Shown one piece after another: positions 1,303-9,724 of a stretch of 9,724 bases of DNA. The notes beneath the pieces were generated by a model. It was not told where the DNA came from. It was given only the letters and a program-made list of their open reading frames with translations, and searched no databases. The position numbers and the translations under genes were made by a program. Position 1 is the first letter of the stretch; the number at the start of each line of letters is the position of its first letter. Source of the DNA: Defluviitaleaceae bacterium (GTDB lineage Bacteria; Bacillota_A; Clostridia; Lachnospirales; WQUN01); contig WREB01000024.1 of NCBI GenBank assembly GCA_009779525.1, positions 1 to 9,724 on the forward strand, read 5' to 3'.

Positions 1303-1509
1303 ATGGCCGTCGTAACCGTAAACGAAAACATATGCCAGGGCTGCGGGCTTTGCGTTAACGCGTGTCCGAAGAAGATCGTCGAGCTTATCAAGGGTAGGCT
1401 CAACGCGCGCGGCTTTCACCCAGCGGGCGTAACTAAACCCGAAGCCTGCACAGGTTGCGCGTTTTGCGCCGTAATGTGTCCGGATGTCGCGATTATGGTC
1501 GAGAAATGA
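1303..1509 (+). CDS. 2x[4Fe-4S] ferredoxin-like delta subunit of 2-oxoacid:ferredoxin oxidoreductase
   Basis: A 68-residue protein with two full CxxCxxCxxxCP motifs: Cys11, 14, 17, 21 and Cys49, 52, 55, 59. It should hold two [4Fe-4S] clusters and carry electrons from the TPP-bearing catalytic subunits to external ferredoxin. Two such motifs in a small protein next to alpha, beta and gamma genes match the delta (VorD/KorD/PorD-like) subunit. The ATG follows the upstream stop with no gap. A GGGAG site at 1289-1293, inside the end of the ATPase gene, is nine bases away, so the two genes are probably translationally coupled. The alpha-subunit gene starts 14 bases after the stop. It could be called simply a 4Fe-4S ferredoxin, but its place in the operon favours a dedicated subunit. 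Confidence 0.93.
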   Translation: MAVVTVNENICQGCGLCVNACPKKIVELIKGRLNARGFHPAGVTKPEACTGCAFCAVMCPDVAIMVEK

Positions 1510-1511
1510 TT

Positions 1512-1519
1512 GGGGGAAG
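1512..1519 (+). promoter_or_regulatory. Ribosome binding site fixing the VorB start
   Basis: GGGGGAAG ends four bases before the ATG at 1524. The reading frame is open further upstream to an ATG at 1455, but that start lies inside the ferredoxin-like gene and has no comparable site. MPDKVLMKGNEA from 1524 matches the usual beginning of this subunit. Confidence 0.6.
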
Positions 1520-1523
1520 CCGT

Positions 1524-2576
1524 ATGCCTGACAAAGTCTTGATGAAGGGTAACGAGGCGATCGCGGAGGCGGCGGTCGCCGCCGGGTGCCGCCATTATTT
1601 CGGCTACCCGATCACCCCGCAAAACGAGATCGGCGCGTACATGTCGAAGCGCCTGCCCCAAATAGGCGGGGTTTTTTTGCAGGCGGAGAGCGAGATCGCG
1701 GCGATAAACATGGTGCTGGGCGCTTCGGCCGCGGGCAAACGGGCGATGACGACAAGCAGCAGCCCGGGTGTCGCGCTTAAGGGCGAGGGGCTTTCGTACA
1801 TGGCCGGCTGCGACCTTCCGGCGGTAGTCGCCAACGTGCAGCGCGGCGGGCCGGGGCTCGGAAGCATCCAGCCGTCGCAGGCGGATTATTTTTTGGCGAC
1901 GCGTTCCGCCGGGCACGGCGATTTCCGTATGATCACGCTTGCGCCGGGCGGCGTGCAGGAAATGTTCGATCTCACGTACGAGGCGTTTTGGCTCGCGGAC
2001 AGGTACCGCGTCGCCTGCATGATCCTCACGGACGGCGTGCTCGGGCAGATGATGGAGCCGGTCGCATTTTACGCGAAGCCGGAAAGGGAGCTGCCCGCGA
2101 AGGACTGGGCCGTCACCGGGACCGGGGGGAAACGCGGCAACAACGTCGTCAACTCGCTTTTCATGGAGCCCGAGGAGCTCGAGCGCGTCAATCTCGAACG
2201 CTACGCGCGCTACGGGCAAATCGAGGAGGACGAACCGCGCCACGAACAATACATGACCGAAGGCGCCGAAATTATAGTGACCGCGTACGGCGCCGCCTCT
2301 CGCGCCGCCAAAAACGCGGTGGACGCGCTTCGGGGCGAAGGCGCGAAGGTGGGCCTGATCAGGCCCGTGACGCTGTGGCCGTTCCCTAAGAAGGCGTTTT
2401 TAAATTTGGCGAAAAGCGCCAAGGCTTTTTTAACGGTCGAGATGAGCATGGGCCAAATGATAGACGACGTTAGGCTTTCGATCGAATGCCTGCGGCCGGT
2501 GACGCTTTGCTCGCGCGTGGGCGGAGTCGTGCTTCAACCGGGCGACATCATAGAAAAAGTAAGGGAATTGCTTTAA
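1524..2576 (+). CDS. vorB: 2-oxoacid:ferredoxin oxidoreductase alpha subunit, VorB type (3-methyl-2-oxobutanoate)
   Basis: A 350-residue cytosolic subunit. With the beta, gamma and delta subunits it catalyses the CoA-dependent oxidative decarboxylation of a 2-oxoacid to acyl-CoA and CO2, reducing ferredoxin. The N-terminal pyrimidine-binding domain shows MKGNEAIAEAA (7-17), GYPITPQNE (27-35), QAESE (53-57), the TTSSSPG stretch (76-82) and RGGPGLG (107-113). ILTDGVLGQMMEP lies in the middle, and the C-terminal part (from about 245) fits the transketolase-C-like domain. This pattern and the 350-residue length recall the VorB group (branched-chain 2-oxoacids from Val, Leu, Ile). Separating VorB from 2-oxoglutarate (KorA) enzymes by eye is less certain, so the substrate is tentative. 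The gene lies between the delta and beta genes, with a 46-base gap before beta. No truncation or missing motif is visible. Confidence 0.92.
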   Translation: MPDKVLMKGNEAIAEAAVAAGCRHYFGYPITPQNEIGAYMSKRLPQIGGVFLQAESEIAAINMVLGASAAGKRAMTTSSSPGVALKGEGLSYMAGCDLPAVVANVQRGGPGLGSIQPSQADYFLATRSAGHGDFRMITLAPGGVQEMFDLTYEAFWLADRYRVACMILTDGVLGQMMEPVAFYAKPERELPAKDWAVTGTGGKRGNNVVNSLFMEPEELERVNLERYARYGQIEEDEPRHEQYMTEGAEIIVTAYGAASRAAKNAVDALRGEGAKVGLIRPVTLWPFPKKAFLNLAKSAKAFLTVEMSMGQMIDDVRLSIECLRPVTLCSRVGGVVLQPGDIIEKVRELL

Positions 2577-2610
2577 CGAAAATAATTTCCGGTTTATCCT
2601 GAAATCATAG

Positions 2611-2616
2611 AAGGAG
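2611..2616 (+). promoter_or_regulatory. Consensus ribosome binding site of the beta subunit
   Basis: AAGGAG with a six-base gap to the ATG at 2623. It is the best Shine-Dalgarno match in this operon and fixes the start in a 46-base spacer that otherwise holds only a small imperfect hairpin (2585-2605, five paired bases, one mismatch, then two more pairs). Confidence 0.7.
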
Positions 2617-2622
2617 CCTGTC

Positions 2623-3372
2623 ATGGCCGTTGTGTTTAAAAAACCCGAAGCGCTGTCACAAACGCATATGCGTTACTGCCCGGGCTGCGGGCACGGTATC
2701 ATTCACCGCCTTGTCGCCGAAGCGATCGACGAAAACGGCGCGTTAAGCAAAACAGTCGGGGTCGCACCGGTCGGCTGCTCGGTTTTCGCGTACGAATACT
2801 TCAGCTGCGACATGGTGCAGGCCGCGCATGGGCGCGCGCCGGCAGTCGCGACGGGAATAAAGCGCGCCAGCCCCGACAGCCTCGTCTTCACCTACCAGGG
2901 CGACGGCGACCTCGCCGCCATCGGCTGCGCCGAAACGGTGCACGCCGCGGCGCGCGGCGAAAACATCACGATCATATTCGTCAACAACGCCGTTTACGGC
3001 ATGACCGGCGGGCAGATGGCGCCGACGACCCTCAAGGGCCAGGTTACGCAGACTTCGCCCTACGGCAGGGACGAATCTAGCGCCGGTATGCCGATCAGGG
3101 TTTGCGAGATGCTCGCGACGCTAGAGAGCGCGTACTATATCGAGCGCGTCTCGATCGATTGCGTCAAAAGCGTAATGGCCGCAAAAAAGGCGATATCAAA
3201 GGCGTTCAGGTACCAAGCCGAAAAAAGGGGCTTTACGCTGATTGAGGTCGTCTCAAACTGCCCGACGTACTGGGGCGTAAGCCCGGTCGAGTCGCTCGAC
3301 TTTATCCGCGACAAGATGCTTCCCTATTATCCGCCGGGCGTCTTCAAAGATAAGGCCGGTGGCGCGGCATGA
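2623..3372 (+). CDS. 2-oxoacid:ferredoxin oxidoreductase beta subunit, thiamine-pyrophosphate binding (VorA/KorB type)
   Basis: A 249-residue subunit that binds TPP and the proximal [4Fe-4S] cluster. CPGCGHG at 19-25 gives Cys19 and Cys22; Cys52 (in APVGCS) and Cys213 (in SNCP) complete the usual four cluster ligands. HGRA is at 69-72. The TPP/Mg motif runs from GDGD (93-96) to NN (121-122), followed by VYGMTGGQMAPTT, which is typical of 2-oxoacid:ferredoxin oxidoreductase beta subunits. The length fits the short-beta enzymes made of separate subunits. Its stop overlaps the start of the gamma gene (ATGA at 3369-3372), so the two are translationally coupled. Gene names vory (vorA, vorC, korB) between organisms, so no symbol is given. 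All catalytic residues appear intact. Confidence 0.93.
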   Translation: MAVVFKKPEALSQTHMRYCPGCGHGIIHRLVAEAIDENGALSKTVGVAPVGCSVFAYEYFSCDMVQAAHGRAPAVATGIKRASPDSLVFTYQGDGDLAAIGCAETVHAAARGENITIIFVNNAVYGMTGGQMAPTTLKGQVTQTSPYGRDESSAGMPIRVCEMLATLESAYYIERVSIDCVKSVMAAKKAISKAFRYQAEKRGFTLIEVVSNCPTYWGVSPVESLDFIRDKMLPYYPPGVFKDKAGGAA

Positions 3373-3908
3373 AGCGCGTATTAATTTCTGGCTTCGGCGG
3401 CCAGGGCATCCAGTTCGCCGGCAAGTTTTTAGCCAACGCCGCGATGATTATGGGCATGGAAGTGACGTACTTCCCGTCCTACGGCCCCGAAACCAGAGGC
3501 GGGGCGTCGTTTTGCCATATAATCATATCGGACGCCGCAATCGGGTCGCCCGTGGTGGTCGTCCCCGACATACTTTTTTGCCTAAGCCTGCCCGCGCTCG
3601 AAAAGTTCGAGGCAACACTTGCGCCGGGCGGCGTTGTATACGTCGACGATTCGCTGATAAACCGGAAAGTCTGCGGGATCCCTGACAATTCGGCGGCCGT
3701 CTACATCCCGGCGACCAGGCTCGCGTTCGAGCATGGCCTCGAGGGGCTCGGCAACATGATAATGGTCGGCGCTTCCATATGCCGCGACGCGATCTGCGAT
3801 AAAAAAATCGTCGGCGAAGCGATGGGCCGCGTCATATCGGCGCGTAAACGTGACATGTACGAGGCTAACATCAAGGCGATAGAAATCGGCTTCGGCTTTA
3901 TTAAATAA
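3369..3908 (+). CDS. 2-oxoacid:ferredoxin oxidoreductase gamma subunit
   Basis: A 179-residue catalytic-domain III subunit. GFGGQGI at 8-14 and PSYGPETRGG at 36-45 are the signature motifs of the gamma (VorC/KorC/PorC) family, which contributes to CoA binding and the subunit interface. Its start overlaps the beta stop by four bases. With it the operon encodes all four subunits expected of a heterotetrameric enzyme. The last codons (G-F-G-F-I-K-stop) have a near-identical DNA copy 82 bases downstream, outside the gene; see the repeat entries. No usual intrinsic terminator follows. Confidence 0.93.
   Translation: MKRVLISGFGGQGIQFAGKFLANAAMIMGMEVTYFPSYGPETRGGASFCHIIISDAAIGSPVVVVPDILFCLSLPALEKFEATLAPGGVVYVDDSLINRKVCGIPDNSAAVYIPATRLAFEHGLEGLGNMIMVGASICRDAICDKKIVGEAMGRVISARKRDMYEANIKAIEIGFGFIK
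3888..3908 (+). repeat. Direct repeat copy 1: 3' end of the gamma-subunit gene
   Basis: The last seven codons of the gamma gene, including its stop, match 3970-3990 at 20 of 21 positions (T/C at 3902 against 3984). Similarity continues loosely for about ten bases beyond the stop if one base is inserted. Encodes G-F-G-F-I-K-stop. Confidence 0.75.
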
Positions 3909-4650: not shown

Positions 4651-6321
4651 ATGGGATTCATCCATAGATTTTGCGAAACAGAATTTTCTTCCCACGAAGA
4701 CTTCTACGAAAATTTCAAGCTGGAAATGCCCGAGCGTTTCAATTTCGGCTACGACGTGGTGGACCGCCTCGCCGCCTTGCAGCCGGACAAGACCGCGCTC
4801 GTATGGTGCAACGACCGCGGGGACGCCAAAACAATGAGCTTCGCGGACATAAGCCGGGTAAGCGACAAAATGGCAAACGCGCTAAAATCGCTTGGCGTCG
4901 GGCGCGGCGACATGGTCATGACGATGCTCAAGCGCCGTATCGAATACTGGCCGTTCGCTATAGCCGCGCATAAGATCGGCGCGGTGCTGATACCGGCGAC
5001 GCACATGCTGACCGAAAAGGACCTGGCGTACAGGATCGAGGCGGCGGGCATAAAAATGACGCTGACGGTCGAGGACGGCCCGCTCTGCGGCTACATCGAC
5101 GACGCCCAGCAAAAGACCGGCGATGTGCTTAGGGTTAAGGCGCTGCTATTCGGGAAACGCGAGGGCTACGTTAACTTCACGGAACTTTTCGAAAGCGCGC
5201 CGGAGACATTCGCCAGGCCCGCGTCCTACGATTTGCCCGGCGCGCGCGAAATGATGCTCATATACTTCACCTCGGGCACGACCGGAATGCCCAAGATGGC
5301 CGCGCACGACTTCCTTTACCCGCTCTGCCACCTAACCACCGCGAAATTTTGGCACGGGCTCGATTCGTCCGACCTCCACCTTTCGATCGCGGACACGGGT
5401 TGGGCGAAGGCGTCGTGGAGCCTCATATACGGCCAGTGGATCTGCGAGGCCGCCGTCTTCGTGTACGACTACGACGGCAAGTTCCAGCCGGCGGACCATC
5501 TGGCGCTTATCGACAAGTACAAAGTGACTTCGTTTTGCGCGCCGCCCACGTCCTACAGGTTTTTGATCAAGGAAGACATATCAAAATATTCCCTAAAGTC
5601 GCTGAAAAAATGCACGACCGCCGGCGAACCGCTTAACCCCGAGGTCTACAGGCGCTGGCTTGAGGCGACCGGCGTGATGATCCGCGAGGGGTTCGGCCAA
5701 TCCGAAAGCGTCGTGATGGTCGCGACCACCGTCTGGACGAAGCCCGTCCCGGGCTCGCTCGGGATGCTAATGCCCGAAACCGGGACGACGGTGCAAGACG
5801 AGCACGGCGACGAATGCGAGCCGGGCGAAGAGGGCGAAATCTGCGTCCGCGTCCCGGACGAGACAAACCGGCCGATAGGCCTGTTCATGGGCTACTACCG
5901 CGACGAAGAAAAAACGCGCGCAGTTTGGCGCGACGGGATATACCACACCGGCGACGCGGTATGGCAAAACGAGGACGGCTACGTTTTCTTCAAGGGGCGA
6001 AACGACGACATCATAAAAAGCTCCGGCTACCGCATCGGCCCGTTTGAAGTCGAATCCGCGCTGCTCGAGCATCCGGCGGTGCTGGAGTCGGCGGTGACCG
6101 CGGTCCCCGACGCCGACAGGGGCGCGAGCGTCAAGGCGACGATCGTGCTGACAAAAGGGTACGAGCCTTCCGACGCGCTAATAAAAGAGCTGCAGGACCA
6201 CGTCAAAAAAGTGACGGCGCCGTATAAATACCCGCGCATAATCGAATTCGCGGACGAGCTGCCGCGGACGATAAGCCAAAAGATCCGGCGGAAAGAAATC
6301 CGCGAGCGCGACTCGATCTGA
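4651..6321 (+). CDS. AMP-forming acyl-CoA synthetase (acetyl/medium-chain acyl-CoA synthetase-like)
   Basis: A 556-residue ligase that activates a carboxylic acid with ATP to acyl-AMP and transfers it to CoA, releasing AMP and pyrophosphate. ANL-superfamily motifs appear in order: YFTSGTTGMPK (205-215), DTGWAKASW (248-256), TAGEPLNPEV (323-332), EGFGQSE (346-352), HTGD (432-435), GRNDDIIKSSGYRIGPFEVE (449-468), and the C-terminal lysine motif at 537-547. DTGWAK and the overall length point to the acetyl/medium-chain (ACSM-like) branch and away from FadD. Lys544 is kept, but the residue before it, normally Gly, is Gln543. Start chosen from GGGAG (4639-4643) seven bases before the ATG. It follows the XRE-cupin regulator and probably is controlled by it. 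The substrate is not decided by sequence; short or branched acids linked to the upstream oxidoreductase are plausible. Confidence 0.93.
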   Translation: MGFIHRFCETEFSSHEDFYENFKLEMPERFNFGYDVVDRLAALQPDKTALVWCNDRGDAKTMSFADISRVSDKMANALKSLGVGRGDMVMTMLKRRIEYWPFAIAAHKIGAVLIPATHMLTEKDLAYRIEAAGIKMTLTVEDGPLCGYIDDAQQKTGDVLRVKALLFGKREGYVNFTELFESAPETFARPASYDLPGAREMMLIYFTSGTTGMPKMAAHDFLYPLCHLTTAKFWHGLDSSDLHLSIADTGWAKASWSLIYGQWICEAAVFVYDYDGKFQPADHLALIDKYKVTSFCAPPTSYRFLIKEDISKYSLKSLKKCTTAGEPLNPEVYRRWLEATGVMIREGFGQSESVVMVATTVWTKPVPGSLGMLMPETGTTVQDEHGDECEPGEEGEICVRVPDETNRPIGLFMGYYRDEEKTRAVWRDGIYHTGDAVWQNEDGYVFFKGRNDDIIKSSGYRIGPFEVESALLEHPAVLESAVTAVPDADRGASVKATIVLTKGYEPSDALIKELQDHVKKVTAPYKYPRIIEFADELPRTISQKIRRKEIRERDSI

Positions 6322-6384: not shown

Positions 6385-7560
6385 ATGATAGAAATTACCG
6401 CGCTCGGAAACTTCGTCGTATCGATCAACGGTAAAAACGTTTCCGAATATTTCAGGCATACCAAAAAACTTTTGCACCTTTTCGGCCTGATCCTTTTAAA
6501 CCGCGGCAAGCCGACGCCGACAGAGACGATCCGCGAGGCGGTATGGGGCGACGGCGAAGAAAGCGACGCAAAGAAGGCGTTGCAAAACCTGGTGTACAGG
6601 CTTCGGGCGCTCTTTATCGAAAACGGGATACCGGACGTCCTAATTTACCAAAACAAAACCTACAGCCTTAACGAAAGCCATCCGTTTTCAGCCGACATCT
6701 ACAGATTCGAGGACGCCTGCCAAAATGCGCGCCACGCTTCGGCGGACGAATCTTCGCGAATCAAATATTTAAGCGAGGCGTGCGGGCTTTACGGCGGGCC
6801 GCTCATCTTCGGCCAGATCATTGACGACAGGCACGCGCTCGCCGCGGCCGACAGGTACAAGCGCATGTACATAGATTCGGTATGCGCCCTCGGCGACATC
6901 TACCGCGAAGCGAAGGATTACGAAAAGCTTTTTGCGGTCTGCGAGAAGGCGGTCCGCCTCGAGCCGACGGACGAATCCGTCTGCCTCCGATTCGCGGAGG
7001 GGCTAAACGCAAACGGAATGCATTCGCAGGCGATCCATCTGATCGAAAATTTCCAGGAAATAAGCTACCGCGAAACCGGAAAGACATTGTCCGAAGCGTT
7101 GGGCCAAATCTATAAGCAGATCGACGGGGCCAAGCAGACCGAGAAGCACGACGCCGTCTTCGTCATGAACGAGCTTATGGAGCTCAATACGCTCGAAAAG
7201 GCGATGTACTGCGGCTTCGACGTCTTCAAGGATATCTTCCGCTACGAAACGCGCCAGGCAAAGCGCCGCGGGTATGTCGTTACGTTGATTTTGATCGAGA
7301 CCCACGGGGCGAACGGCTGCGAGCTGCCCGCGAGGGTATTGACCAAGGCGAAAAAAAGCCTGAACGAATGCTGCATGCTGACGCTGCGCAGAGGAGACGT
7401 CTTTTCTAGCTATTCGAAGTCGATCACGGCGGTTTTGATAATCGCCGGAAGCGAAATGGACGCAAACGTCGTGATAAGCAGGATCCGCGACATGTTCTAC
7501 GAACGCTTTAAGATAGATAGGGTATACCTGCGCTTCGAGCGGCAGGTCTCCATTCCCTGA
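6385..7560 (+). CDS. BTAD-domain (SARP-like) transcriptional regulator with degenerate GGDEF-like C-terminus
   Basis: A 391-residue protein. Residues 1-98 form an OmpR/PhoB-type winged helix (ITALGNFVVSINGK, then ...TETIREAVWGD...ALQNLVYRLR). Residues about 100-245 are an all-helical bacterial transcriptional activation domain with TPR-like repeats (YLSEACGLYGGPL, ...YREAKDYEKLFAVCEKAVRLEP). The tail (about 278-374) has the layout of a GGDEF domain: FDVFKDIFRYETRQAKRRG, VVTLILIETH, LRRGDVFSSYSKSI, VLIIAGSEMDANVVISRIR. The GGDEF signature itself is replaced by SSYSKSI (341-347), so no diguanylate cyclase activity is expected and the tail may bind a ligand or partner. AGGGA (6372-6376) lies eight bases before the ATG. 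The gene sits between two ligase genes and is a likely activator of the fusion gene 25 bases downstream. The domain calls are by pattern, the GGDEF-like one least sure. Confidence 0.88.
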   Translation: MIEITALGNFVVSINGKNVSEYFRHTKKLLHLFGLILLNRGKPTPTETIREAVWGDGEESDAKKALQNLVYRLRALFIENGIPDVLIYQNKTYSLNESHPFSADIYRFEDACQNARHASADESSRIKYLSEACGLYGGPLIFGQIIDDRHALAAADRYKRMYIDSVCALGDIYREAKDYEKLFAVCEKAVRLEPTDESVCLRFAEGLNANGMHSQAIHLIENFQEISYRETGKTLSEALGQIYKQIDGAKQTEKHDAVFVMNELMELNTLEKAMYCGFDVFKDIFRYETRQAKRRGYVVTLILIETHGANGCELPARVLTKAKKSLNECCMLTLRRGDVFSSYSKSITAVLIIAGSEMDANVVISRIRDMFYERFKIDRVYLRFERQVSIP

Positions 7561-7585: not shown

Positions 7586-9724
7586 ATGAAAATTGCGTTT
7601 TCCACCCTCGCCTGCCCCGAGGAAAGCTGGCAGGACATATATTCGATCGCGAAGGACGCCGGGTTCGACGGCATAGAGATGCGCGGGCTTGGCAAAAACG
7701 TGTTCGCGGCTAGGGGCCTCGTCGCGTCGGAAGCCGCGATCGACGGCGCGAGGGACAAGCTGAAGGCGATCCGCATATCGATACCGTGCTTCTCCTCTGA
7801 CTGCTGCCTCGGCGACGCGGACAAAACCGAAGAAAACCGCGCCCTCGTCCTCGAATACATCGAGTGGGCGCGCAGGTTCGGCTCCGATTTCGTGAGGGTG
7901 CTGGGCGACCGCGACGTCTATCCGGCGGGGGACATCGACGACGAGCTTGTGATAAGCCAGCTGCGCGAACTGTCACAAGCCGCGGAGCATAGCGGCGTGA
8001 CGCTTCTGATCGAGACGAACGGCGCCTACGCCGAAACTAGCCGCCTAAGAAAGCTGCTGGAGGCGGTCGCAAGCGACTCGGTCGGCGTGCTATGGGACAT
8101 CCACCATCCCTACCGGGTCTTCGGCGAATCGCCCGAAACGACGGTGCAAAACCTCGGCGCGTACATTAAGTACGTCCACGCGAAGGATTCGGTGATCGAA
8201 AACGGAAAGCCCTCCTACCGGCTGATGGGCGAAGGGGACCTGCCGGTCCGCGAAATGATGATGGCGCTGCGCTCGATCAACTACGAGGGCTACGTCTCGC
8301 TCGAATGGGTAAAGCGGTGGGCGTCCGAGCTCGAGGACGCGGGTATAGTTTTCCCGCATTTCGTGAACTACATGAAGCAGTACCTAGGCAGGCCGGCCGC
8401 GCAGGGCGCGCTTTTCGACAACGACGCCAAGACGGGCAAATACATATGGGAAAAAGAAACGCTAATCGACCTCACATTCCCGCAGCTGCTGGACCGCATC
8501 GCGGACGAATTCCCCGACCAGTACGCCTTCCGCTACACCACGCTCGACTACGCGCGCACGTACAGGCAGTTCAACCAGGACGTCAACGCGTTCGCAAGGG
8601 CCTTATCTTCGCTTGGGGTCAAGCGCGGCGACAAAGTTTCGGTATGGGCGACCAACGTGCCCGAATGGTACATAACGTTTTGGGCGACGGTTAAAATCGG
8701 CGCGATACTCGTGACCGTAAACACCGCGTACAAGATACACGAGGCGGAATTTTTGCTGCGCCAGTCCGACACGCACACGCTGGTCATGATCGAAAGCCAC
8801 AAAGATTCCGACTACGCGTCCACCGTGCGCGAAATATGCCCGGAACTTTTGACGCGCGGCGCGGGAGAAGCGCTCCACGCCAAGCGCCTGCCGTTCCTTC
8901 GAAACGTGATAACGGTCGGGTTTAAAATGCAAGGCTGCCTGACCTGGGACCAGGCCATGCGGCGCGAAACCGAAACGCCCGCCGAATACGTATACCAGCG
9001 CATGGCGCTGATAAGCCAGCACGACGTCTGCAACATCCAGTACACATCCGGCACGACCGGCTTCCCCAAAGGCGTCATGCTCACGCACCACAACGTAATC
9101 AACAACGGAAAGAACATCGGCGACAGGATGGATTTTTCGACCGCCGACAAACTGATGATACAAGTCCCGATGTTCCACTGCTTCGGGCTGGTGCTTGCCA
9201 TGACCGCCGCCGTCACGCACGGCTCGACCATGTGCCCGCTGCCGCACTTCTCGCCGAAGCAATCGCTCGACTGCGTCAATAAAGAAAAAATAACCGCGTT
9301 CCACGGAGTCCCGACTATGTTCATCGCGATGATGGAACACGAAGACTTCGCCAAAACAGACTTTTCAAGCGTGCGCACGGGAATAATGGCGGGAAGCGTC
9401 TGCCCGCCCAAAGTCAGGCGCGACGCGATGGAAAAAATGAACATGACCGGACTTACCGTCGTGTACGGACAAACCGAATCCTCCCCGGGCTGCACGATGA
9501 ACCGCATGGAAGACCCGATAGACGAAAGGCTTACGACCGTCGGCCGCGCGCTTCCGGGCGCCGAATGCAAGATCGTCGACATCCATACGGGGCTTGACCT
9601 ACCCGACGGCGCCGACGGTGAATTCGTCGCGCGCGGCTATAATATAATGAAGGGATACTACAAAATGCCCGAAGCCACCGCAAGCGTCGTCGACGAAAAC
9701 GGCTGGCTGCACACGGGCGACCTG
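7586..9724 (+). CDS. Fusion of xylose-isomerase-like TIM barrel and AMP-forming acyl-CoA ligase (partial, C-terminus off the window)
   Basis: One uninterrupted frame of 713 codons to the window edge. Residues 1-267 are a sugar-phosphate isomerase/epimerase-type TIM barrel (IolE/IolI/AP-endonuclease-2 superfamily) with the expected metal ligands Glu143 (LIETNG), Asp171 (WDIHH), His198 (HAKD) and Glu240 (LEW). A linker of about 25 residues follows. From about 294 comes an ANL adenylating ligase: YTSGTTGFPKG at 486-496, YGQTES at 627-632, HTGDL at 709-713. The window ends at that motif; by family some 120-150 residues, including the catalytic C-terminal lysine, should follow. The ligase half differs clearly from the ligase at 4651 and looks more like FadD-type medium/long-chain acyl-CoA ligases. 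GGAG (7574-7577) lies eight bases before the ATG. A barrel acting on a sugar, inositol-like or hydroxy-keto acid whose product is then activated as a CoA ester is a hypothesis. Confidence 0.92.
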   Translation, partial: MKIAFSTLACPEESWQDIYSIAKDAGFDGIEMRGLGKNVFAARGLVASEAAIDGARDKLKAIRISIPCFSSDCCLGDADKTEENRALVLEYIEWARRFGSDFVRVLGDRDVYPAGDIDDELVISQLRELSQAAEHSGVTLLIETNGAYAETSRLRKLLEAVASDSVGVLWDIHHPYRVFGESPETTVQNLGAYIKYVHAKDSVIENGKPSYRLMGEGDLPVREMMMALRSINYEGYVSLEWVKRWASELEDAGIVFPHFVNYMKQYLGRPAAQGALFDNDAKTGKYIWEKETLIDLTFPQLLDRIADEFPDQYAFRYTTLDYARTYRQFNQDVNAFARALSSLGVKRGDKVSVWATNVPEWYITFWATVKIGAILVTVNTAYKIHEAEFLLRQSDTHTLVMIESHKDSDYASTVREICPELLTRGAGEALHAKRLPFLRNVITVGFKMQGCLTWDQAMRRETETPAEYVYQRMALISQHDVCNIQYTSGTTGFPKGVMLTHHNVINNGKNIGDRMDFSTADKLMIQVPMFHCFGLVLAMTAAVTHGSTMCPLPHFSPKQSLDCVNKEKITAFHGVPTMFIAMMEHEDFAKTDFSSVRTGIMAGSVCPPKVRRDAMEKMNMTGLTVVYGQTESSPGCTMNRMEDPIDERLTTVGRALPGAECKIVDIHTGLDLPDGADGEFVARGYNIMKGYYKMPEATASVVDENGWLHTGDL

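What the first reader, a model, noticed from the sequence alone, without database searches (positions are those of the whole stretch)
7586..9724. TIM-barrel isomerase fused to an acyl-CoA ligase in one frame
A complete xylose-isomerase-like barrel with Glu143/Asp171/His198/Glu240 is joined, without stop or frame change, to an adenylating ligase with intact core motifs. The barrel family normally works on sugars, inositols or hydroxy-keto acids; the ligase family makes acyl-CoA. I know no characterised enzyme that combines them. Both halves look active, so the fusion may channel an isomerised acid straight to activation, which would mark an undescribed catabolic step. That the pairing is functional is inference.
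Basis: partly seen in the sequence, partly recalled or inferred. Interest (0 to 1): 0.82.

Follow-up and report, generated by a model that had tools for sequence, protein, structure and literature searches.

The report
Clostridial TIM-barrel / acyl-CoA ligase fusion
A protein in which a sugar-isomerase-like barrel is joined to an enzyme that attaches coenzyme A to acids belongs to a widespread protein family of anaerobic Clostridia, whose two halves also tend to occur together as separate genes.

Summary
In detail: one open frame, 7586-9724, joins a complete xylose-isomerase-like barrel to an AMP-forming acyl-CoA ligase, cut only by the contig end. It is no one-off. About 100 of 391 Clostridia genomes sampled carry it (98 by open frames of at least 600 residues; ligase half confirmed in the 50 read). 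Other Clostridia have the halves as separate genes, adjacent (ligase, then barrel) in 10 of 39 genomes. A ligase orthologue occurs in 34 of those 39 and in 0 of 34 genomes with no or weak barrel match, not corrected for kinship. Trees of both halves separate fused from split forms; both occur in one taxonomic family. So the pairing is very likely functional, though not strict. The metal site and four further residues shared with the dehydratase AsbF are intact in 104 of 105 distinct close fusions. In a second fusion lineage (21) the barrel diverges while the ligase stays 65-69% identical to the window; seven lost three of four metal ligands. Channelling thus cannot be universal, and some barrels look like pseudoenzymes. 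The substrate is unknown; some neighbours (2-oxoacid:ferredoxin oxidoreductase, second acyl-CoA synthetase, acyl-ACP thioesterase, Amidohydro_2) point to organic- or fatty-acid metabolism.

The parts
7586..8446 (+). N-terminal AP_endonuc_2 / xylose-isomerase-like TIM barrel (residues 1-287, including the start of the linker)
8012..8014 (+). codon of Glu143, predicted metal ligand
   Evidence: E-D-H-E set intact in 104 of 105 distinct group I fusions
8096..8098 (+). codon of Asp171, predicted metal ligand (WDxHHPYR motif)
8177..8179 (+). codon of His198, predicted metal ligand (HxKD motif)
8303..8305 (+). codon of Glu240, predicted metal ligand
8453..9724 (+). AMP-forming acyl-CoA ligase half, cut by the contig end; the missing C-terminal domain with its lysine motif is present in full-length relatives
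   Evidence: Pfam PF00501, 310 bits; relatives carry PF13193 and the GKxxKYKM motif
9044..9073 (+). ligase ATP-binding loop TSGTTGFPKG
   Evidence: sequence; all ten positions invariant in 56 aligned relatives
4651..6321 (+). second AMP-forming acyl-CoA synthetase (MbcS/acetate-CoA-ligase-like, below those cut-offs), same strand
   Evidence: Pfam, NCBIfam; homologues directly upstream of the fusion in L013, L015, L028 and, in the split form, beside the barrel in L110
4023..4580 (+). HTH (XRE-like)-cupin regulator directly upstream of the second synthetase
   Evidence: Pfam; a homologue is the immediate neighbour of the synthetase at 20 of 24 synthetase genes in the fetched regions, window included
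1455..3908 (+). 2-oxoacid:ferredoxin oxidoreductase, three genes (VorB-type alpha, beta, gamma)
   Evidence: VorB model 515.2 bits, cut-off 399; same order in L028, on the same fetched region as barrel or ligase in L118, L145, L159
6385..7560 (+). BTAD/TPR transcriptional-activator-like gene, ends 25 bases before the fusion
   Evidence: Pfam PF03704 E 1e-9; absent at this place in L028

Best explanation
The window carries a member of a Clostridia-wide protein family made of two enzymes of one pathway. Shown: the fusion is conserved; both sites are intact by sequence in this clade; the halves co-occur, and are sometimes adjacent, as separate genes in other Clostridia. Inferred: the barrel binds one divalent metal through E143/D171/H198/E240 and uses R104, H174, K200 and Y211 to hold a small oxygen-rich, probably carboxylate-bearing substrate, on which it does metal-assisted proton transfer (isomerisation, epimerisation or dehydration). 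The ligase adenylates a carboxylic acid with ATP and passes it to coenzyme A. Most likely the two act on successive intermediates or on two inputs of one pathway of organic- or fatty-acid metabolism. The fusion keeps them together; strict tunnelling is not needed.
For: Conserved architecture. Site conservation: E-D-H-E plus R-H-K-Y in 104 of 105 distinct group I fusions; in 40 true split barrels E-D-H-E in 39, the 40th being incomplete, and R-H-K-Y in 30 (its 41 rows include L077, a cut fusion). Split-ligase orthologue in 34 of 39 split-barrel genomes against 0 of 34 with no or weak barrel match. Ligase and barrel adjacent in 10 of the 39, by coordinates. One taxonomic family of 14 genomes: 7 intact fusions, 1 fusion with broken frame (G428), 1 barrel at a contig edge that is fusion-like (74% to a fused barrel, 47% to a split one; G426), 2 with both split halves adjacent, 1 split ligase cut by a contig edge (G424), 1 split ligase without a barrel found (G425), 1 with neither. 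Ligase tree: fused and split on two sides of a branch, support 100; the barrel tree agrees, 99. AsbF is the best PDB profile match (E 4.6e-11); 8 of its 11 active-site residues as listed in PMC9324987 (passages seen) align with identical residues here. In G135, one of the five genomes without the ligase, the barrel gene has an internal stop.
Against: 5 of 39 split-barrel genomes lack the ligase orthologue, G425 has a split ligase without a barrel found, and in 5 of 5 tested genomes with both a fusion and a lone barrel there is no separate ligase for the lone barrel. Group II fusions lose barrel residues but keep the ligase. Neighbourhoods are mostly not conserved; a same-strand neighbour lies within 100 bases upstream in 10 of 78 and downstream in 18 of 70 loci. 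The class-level co-occurrence is not corrected for kinship: distant paralogous ligases are also commoner in barrel genomes (22 of 39 against 5 of 34 at E <= 1e-60, counted). No substrate is known.
Confidence: 0.6

Rival explanations
1. The barrel is chiefly a structural or regulatory domain of the ligase (for example sensing a metabolite or aiding assembly); its chemistry is ancestral and dispensable.
For: In 21 group II fusions the barrel is 29-38% identical to the window barrel while the ligase is 65-69% identical. 12 of 21 have lost at least one metal residue; 7 have N, R and A/S in place of D171, H198 and E240, yet all 21 keep E31, W170, E181, D201, G215 and G217. Six group II genomes had a single match to the barrel profile, among them G320 of the seven most decayed, so no second copy was seen to take over there.
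Against: In group I and in the split genes the metal site is almost invariant, also in free-standing barrels, which have no ligase attached. 9 of 21 group II fusions keep the metal set, one of them (L186) all eight residues.
Confidence: 0.22
2. The barrel is a true 3-dehydroshikimate dehydratase and the ligase activates the protocatechuate made, giving an aryl-CoA.
For: Best PDB profile match is AsbF; R104, E143, D171, H174, H198, K200, Y211 and E240 match AsbF active-site residues. Two-domain dehydroshikimate dehydratases are known (QuiC1 and QsuB, start of an abstract; a barrel-dioxygenase fusion, 5hmq). The best PDB sequence match of a related ligase half (L009) is a feruloyl-CoA synthetase (8weu/8wev).
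Against: AsbF Y70, H144 and F211 are not conserved (72, N145, E205). Structure scores do not separate AsbF from Art22 or IolI (Z within 1). The closest curated profile of the ligase is a fatty acid CoA ligase family, and an acyl-ACP thioesterase gene lies beside the split ligase in 5 of 19 regions.
Confidence: 0.1
3. Assembly artefact or chance in-frame join of two unrelated genes.
For: The window is a lone contig of 9724 bases.
Against: The same fusion in 79 of 80 loci kept, including named isolates of Sporomusa and Anaerobacterium.
Confidence: 0.01

Closest known systems
AsbF-type 3-dehydroshikimate dehydratase (PDB 3dx5)
   Same: Same fold and metal set; 8 of 11 listed active-site residues identical; best PDB profile match
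   Different: 20% identity over the structural alignment; H144, Y70, F211 replaced; AsbF carries no ligase
IolI / tagatose-3-epimerase / FrlC / IolO group of PF01261
   Different: The split barrel L110 scores far below curated cut-offs: 57.9 bits against 305 for FrlC, 43.8 against 300 for IolO
Fatty acid CoA ligase family (NCBIfam PRK12583; resemblance to ACSF2 is recalled, not tested)
   Same: Best profile over the whole ligase half
   Different: Below its cut-off of 832: 482 (window, cut), 708.8 (fusion L009), 822.2 (split L110); the fusion also carries the barrel
QuiC1 / QsuB-type barrel-dioxygenase fusions (a barrel/4-hydroxyphenylpyruvate-dioxygenase fusion is PDB 5hmq)
   Same: A PF01261-type barrel as N-terminal half of a fused enzyme
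   Different: Partner there is dioxygenase-like, here an acyl-CoA ligase

Membership tests
PF01261 AP_endonuc_2 (xylose-isomerase-like TIM barrel) | Profile score above gathering threshold | tested here: met
   102.3 bits, cut-off 31.1
PF01261 AP_endonuc_2 (xylose-isomerase-like TIM barrel) | E-D-H-E metal quartet | tested here: met
   present in the window and in 104 of 105 distinct group I fusions; metal binding itself not tested
AsbF-type 3-dehydroshikimate dehydratase | All 11 listed active-site residues | tested here: not met
   8 of 11 aligned identical; Y70, H144, F211 differ (mapped by eye on the printed alignment)
AsbF-type 3-dehydroshikimate dehydratase | Conversion of 3-dehydroshikimate to protocatechuate | not testable with these tools
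   needs an assay
IolI/IolE/Hyi/OtnI or sugar 3-epimerase equivalogs | Curated NCBIfam cut-off | tested here: inconclusive
   Split barrel L110: best FrlC, 57.9 against 305; for window and L009 only ligase models filled the 25 rows shown
AMP-binding (ANL) acyl-CoA ligase | PF00501 with TSGTTG loop and TGD motif | tested here: met
   310 bits, cut-off 29.9; sequence
AMP-binding (ANL) acyl-CoA ligase | C-terminal domain PF13193 with catalytic lysine | tested here: inconclusive
   beyond the contig end in the window; present in full-length relatives
NCBIfam PRK12583 fatty acid CoA ligase family | Curated score 832 | tested here: not met
   482 (window, cut), 708.8 (L009), 822.2 (L110 split)
VorB family 2-oxoacid:ferredoxin oxidoreductase (neighbour 1455-2576) | Curated score of PRK07119 | tested here: met
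   515.2 bits, cut-off 399

The most novel reading that the evidence does not exclude
An undescribed two-enzyme module of anaerobic Clostridia, a metal-dependent barrel hydro-lyase or isomerase paired with an acyl-CoA synthetase, which opens a new route from a polyol or keto acid to an acyl-CoA, and whose fused form has, in one lineage, turned the barrel into a catalytically dead regulator of acid activation.
Probability: 0.3. Interest if true: 0.78.

Novelty: new variant of a known kind. Interest (0 to 1): 0.6.

Why it matters
A common protein of anaerobes carries only generic source names such as 'AMP-binding protein' or 'fatty-acyl-CoA synthase' in the listing. The fused, split and decayed forms make a natural experiment: they suggest that the two activities belong together, offer strains in which each half can be deleted alone, and offer a graded series from enzyme to likely pseudoenzyme in one fold. 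Finding the substrate could add an acid-activation route to anaerobe metabolism.

Tried and rejected
Conserved operon as guide to function: 80 fusion loci share few neighbours and most fusions stand alone. Stand-alone barrels near purL or near uppS-cdsA-dxr-rseP-ispG (both named by eye from the sequence, no call) or near 6-phosphogluconate dehydrogenase were judged incidental, since each set is confined to a few similar loci.

dN/dS of group II barrels: synonymous sites are saturated, no group II barrel pair under dS 1.5, so no value. Indirectly, the seven most decayed barrels are still 75% identical by median.

Literature: searched combinations of the domain names and the neighbours. Searches listed none; the 1, 4 and 4 papers are, by title and start of abstract, on other subjects. 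Open-licence PubMed Central only, so absence is weak.

My first ORF caller took antisense frames at L050, L051, L060 and L063, so one search's 77 of 81 understates conservation and one search's distances are wrong there; the counts used are those. 14 of 119 group I rows are repeats of the same gene. L122 (G135) fell out of the split-barrel set because its barrel has an internal stop.

Amidohydro_2 as an obligatory third part: strong matches also occur in genomes without the barrel, such as G028 and G063.

Correction made on checking: I had read all discordant genomes of the G289 family as contig-edge cuts. The sequences show that G425 really has a split ligase with no barrel in the 726 bases after it.

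Full report
WHAT IS THERE. The frame 7586-9724 is open from ATG to the end of the window (713 codons). It matches PF01261 (residues 21-245) and PF00501 (303-692). The window is the whole contig of this protein (longest contig 9724), so the missing C-terminal part is a limit of the sequence. Most listed relatives have 834-861 residues and PF13193; their C-terminal GKxxKYKM motif is in the alignment.

HOW COMMON. A search restricted to the barrel half, with candidate lengths set by the whole protein, gave 2510 proteins at E <= 1e-3, of which 120 were listed, almost all with both domains. In 391 genomes drawn from the class of Anaerobacterium (G001), 223 matched the barrel profile. Counting that listing, 79 genomes hold a close (group I) match in a long open frame, 77 of them at least 600 residues, and 21 hold a more divergent (group II) match with frames of 673-858. 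So about 100 of 391 by frame length; weaker matches were not all listed. I read 29 of the 79 and all 21, and the ligase half is present in each.

SPLIT FORMS. About 44 of the listed genomes have only a stand-alone barrel in a frame of roughly 270-330 residues. I fetched 40 stand-alone barrel regions, some from genomes that also have a fusion. In 8 of 40 a stand-alone ligase (552-568 residues, 49-53% identical to the window's ligase half) lies just upstream on the same strand. By coordinates the pair is adjacent in 10 of the 39 genomes tested. The order, ligase then barrel, is the reverse of the fusion.

CO-OCCURRENCE. The split ligase was searched in 80 chosen genomes. Of 39 with a split barrel and no fusion, 33 have an orthologue at E < 1e-200 and one (G249) has it in two pieces on two contigs: 34 of 39. 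G372, G140, G135, G241 and G049 do not; the barrel of G135 has an internal stop. Of 34 genomes with no barrel or only weak matches (E above 1e-7), 0 have it; their best match is a 40% partial paralogue. In 7 fusion genomes the match is the fusion itself; five of these also carry a lone barrel and no separate ligase. The control is imperfect: distant paralogous ligases are also more frequent in barrel genomes (22 of 39 against 5 of 34). A tighter test is one taxonomic family of 14 genomes, with unclear cases read directly: 7 have intact fusions; G428 has a fusion with broken frame; G426 has a fusion-like barrel running off a contig; G289 and G423 have both split halves adjacent; G424 has a split ligase running off a contig; G425 has a split ligase and no barrel found; G341 has neither.

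TREES. Ligase tree (75 rows): 27 split ligases against 48 fused, support 100. Barrel tree (89 rows): the 40 true split barrels form one group at 99; the single exception, L077, is a fusion cut at a contig end. This fits one fusion or fission event. The root was not determined, and group I was sampled (27 of 119 rows).

DECAY. The 21 group II fusions form one group in both trees (96 and 99). Their ligase halves are 65-69% identical to the window, their barrels 29-38%. Nine of 21 keep the metal set, and L186 keeps all eight residues. Seven (L195-L201) have E-N-R-A/S in place of E-D-H-E and lose R104, H174, K200 and Y211. Their stem is 2.03 changes per column in the barrel tree against 0.46 in the ligase tree; the barrel tree warns that a long branch meets them there. 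Conserved fold residues and open frames argue for a retained, non-catalytic role; dN/dS could not be measured.

LIGASE. Closest curated model is PRK12583, fatty acid CoA ligase family, just missed by the split form (822 against 832) and missed by the fusion L009 (709). That it resembles ACSF2-type medium-chain synthetases is recalled, not tested. In 19 split-ligase regions, an acyl-ACP thioesterase gene lies beside the ligase in 5 (three of the five checked by Pfam).

SURROUNDINGS. In the window the genes read as real from 544 to the end lie on the + strand: a nucleotide-binding protein, a three-gene VorB-type oxidoreductase, an XRE-cupin regulator, a second acyl-CoA synthetase, a BTAD regulator, the fusion. 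L028 has the same order without the BTAD gene. The oxidoreductase was found with the barrel or ligase in 3 further fetched regions, L118, L145 and L159, and in no other of the regions L101-L180. The regulator-synthetase pair flanks the split ligase-barrel pair in L110. The second synthetase family is in 33 of 39 split-barrel genomes (G049 the weakest, 2e-186), 7 of 7 fusion genomes and 5 of 34 others. Amidohydro_2 genes lie beside the barrel or ligase in 8 of 39 and one gene away in 2 more (coordinates; Pfam) but also occur without them.

READING. The fusion is a genuine two-domain protein, and the co-occurrence of its halves says they very likely share a pathway. Acid activation by the ligase is well founded by family; metal-dependent chemistry by the barrel is well founded for group I; their being successive steps is inference. 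Obligatory channelling is contradicted by split forms and by group II.

Noticed in passing
L195-L201 (group II fusions): Barrel domain with three of four metal ligands replaced while the attached ligase stays about 65% identical to the window: likely pseudoenzyme.
   Followed up: partly
L013, L015, L028: The fusions nearest the window in the ligase tree come from assembled genomes titled Dehalococcoidia (termite gut by recall of the isolate names), yet group among Clostridia sequences: mislabelled bins or gene transfer.
   Followed up: no
window 6385-7560: BTAD/TPR activator-like gene between the second synthetase and the fusion, not at this place in L028.
   Followed up: no
L177 (G028), also open frames of 764-787 residues: Second acyl-CoA synthetase in an open frame about 200-230 residues longer than usual, perhaps fused to an XRE-cupin regulator.
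   Followed up: no
L143, L144, L152, L157, L158: Acyl-ACP thioesterase gene beside the split ligase.
   Followed up: partly
L122 (G135), about 7980-8777, minus strand: Split barrel gene with an internal stop in a genome where no ligase orthologue was found.
   Followed up: partly
L060, antisense to the fusion: An 844-residue open frame runs antisense along the fusion gene; taken as a composition effect.
   Followed up: no
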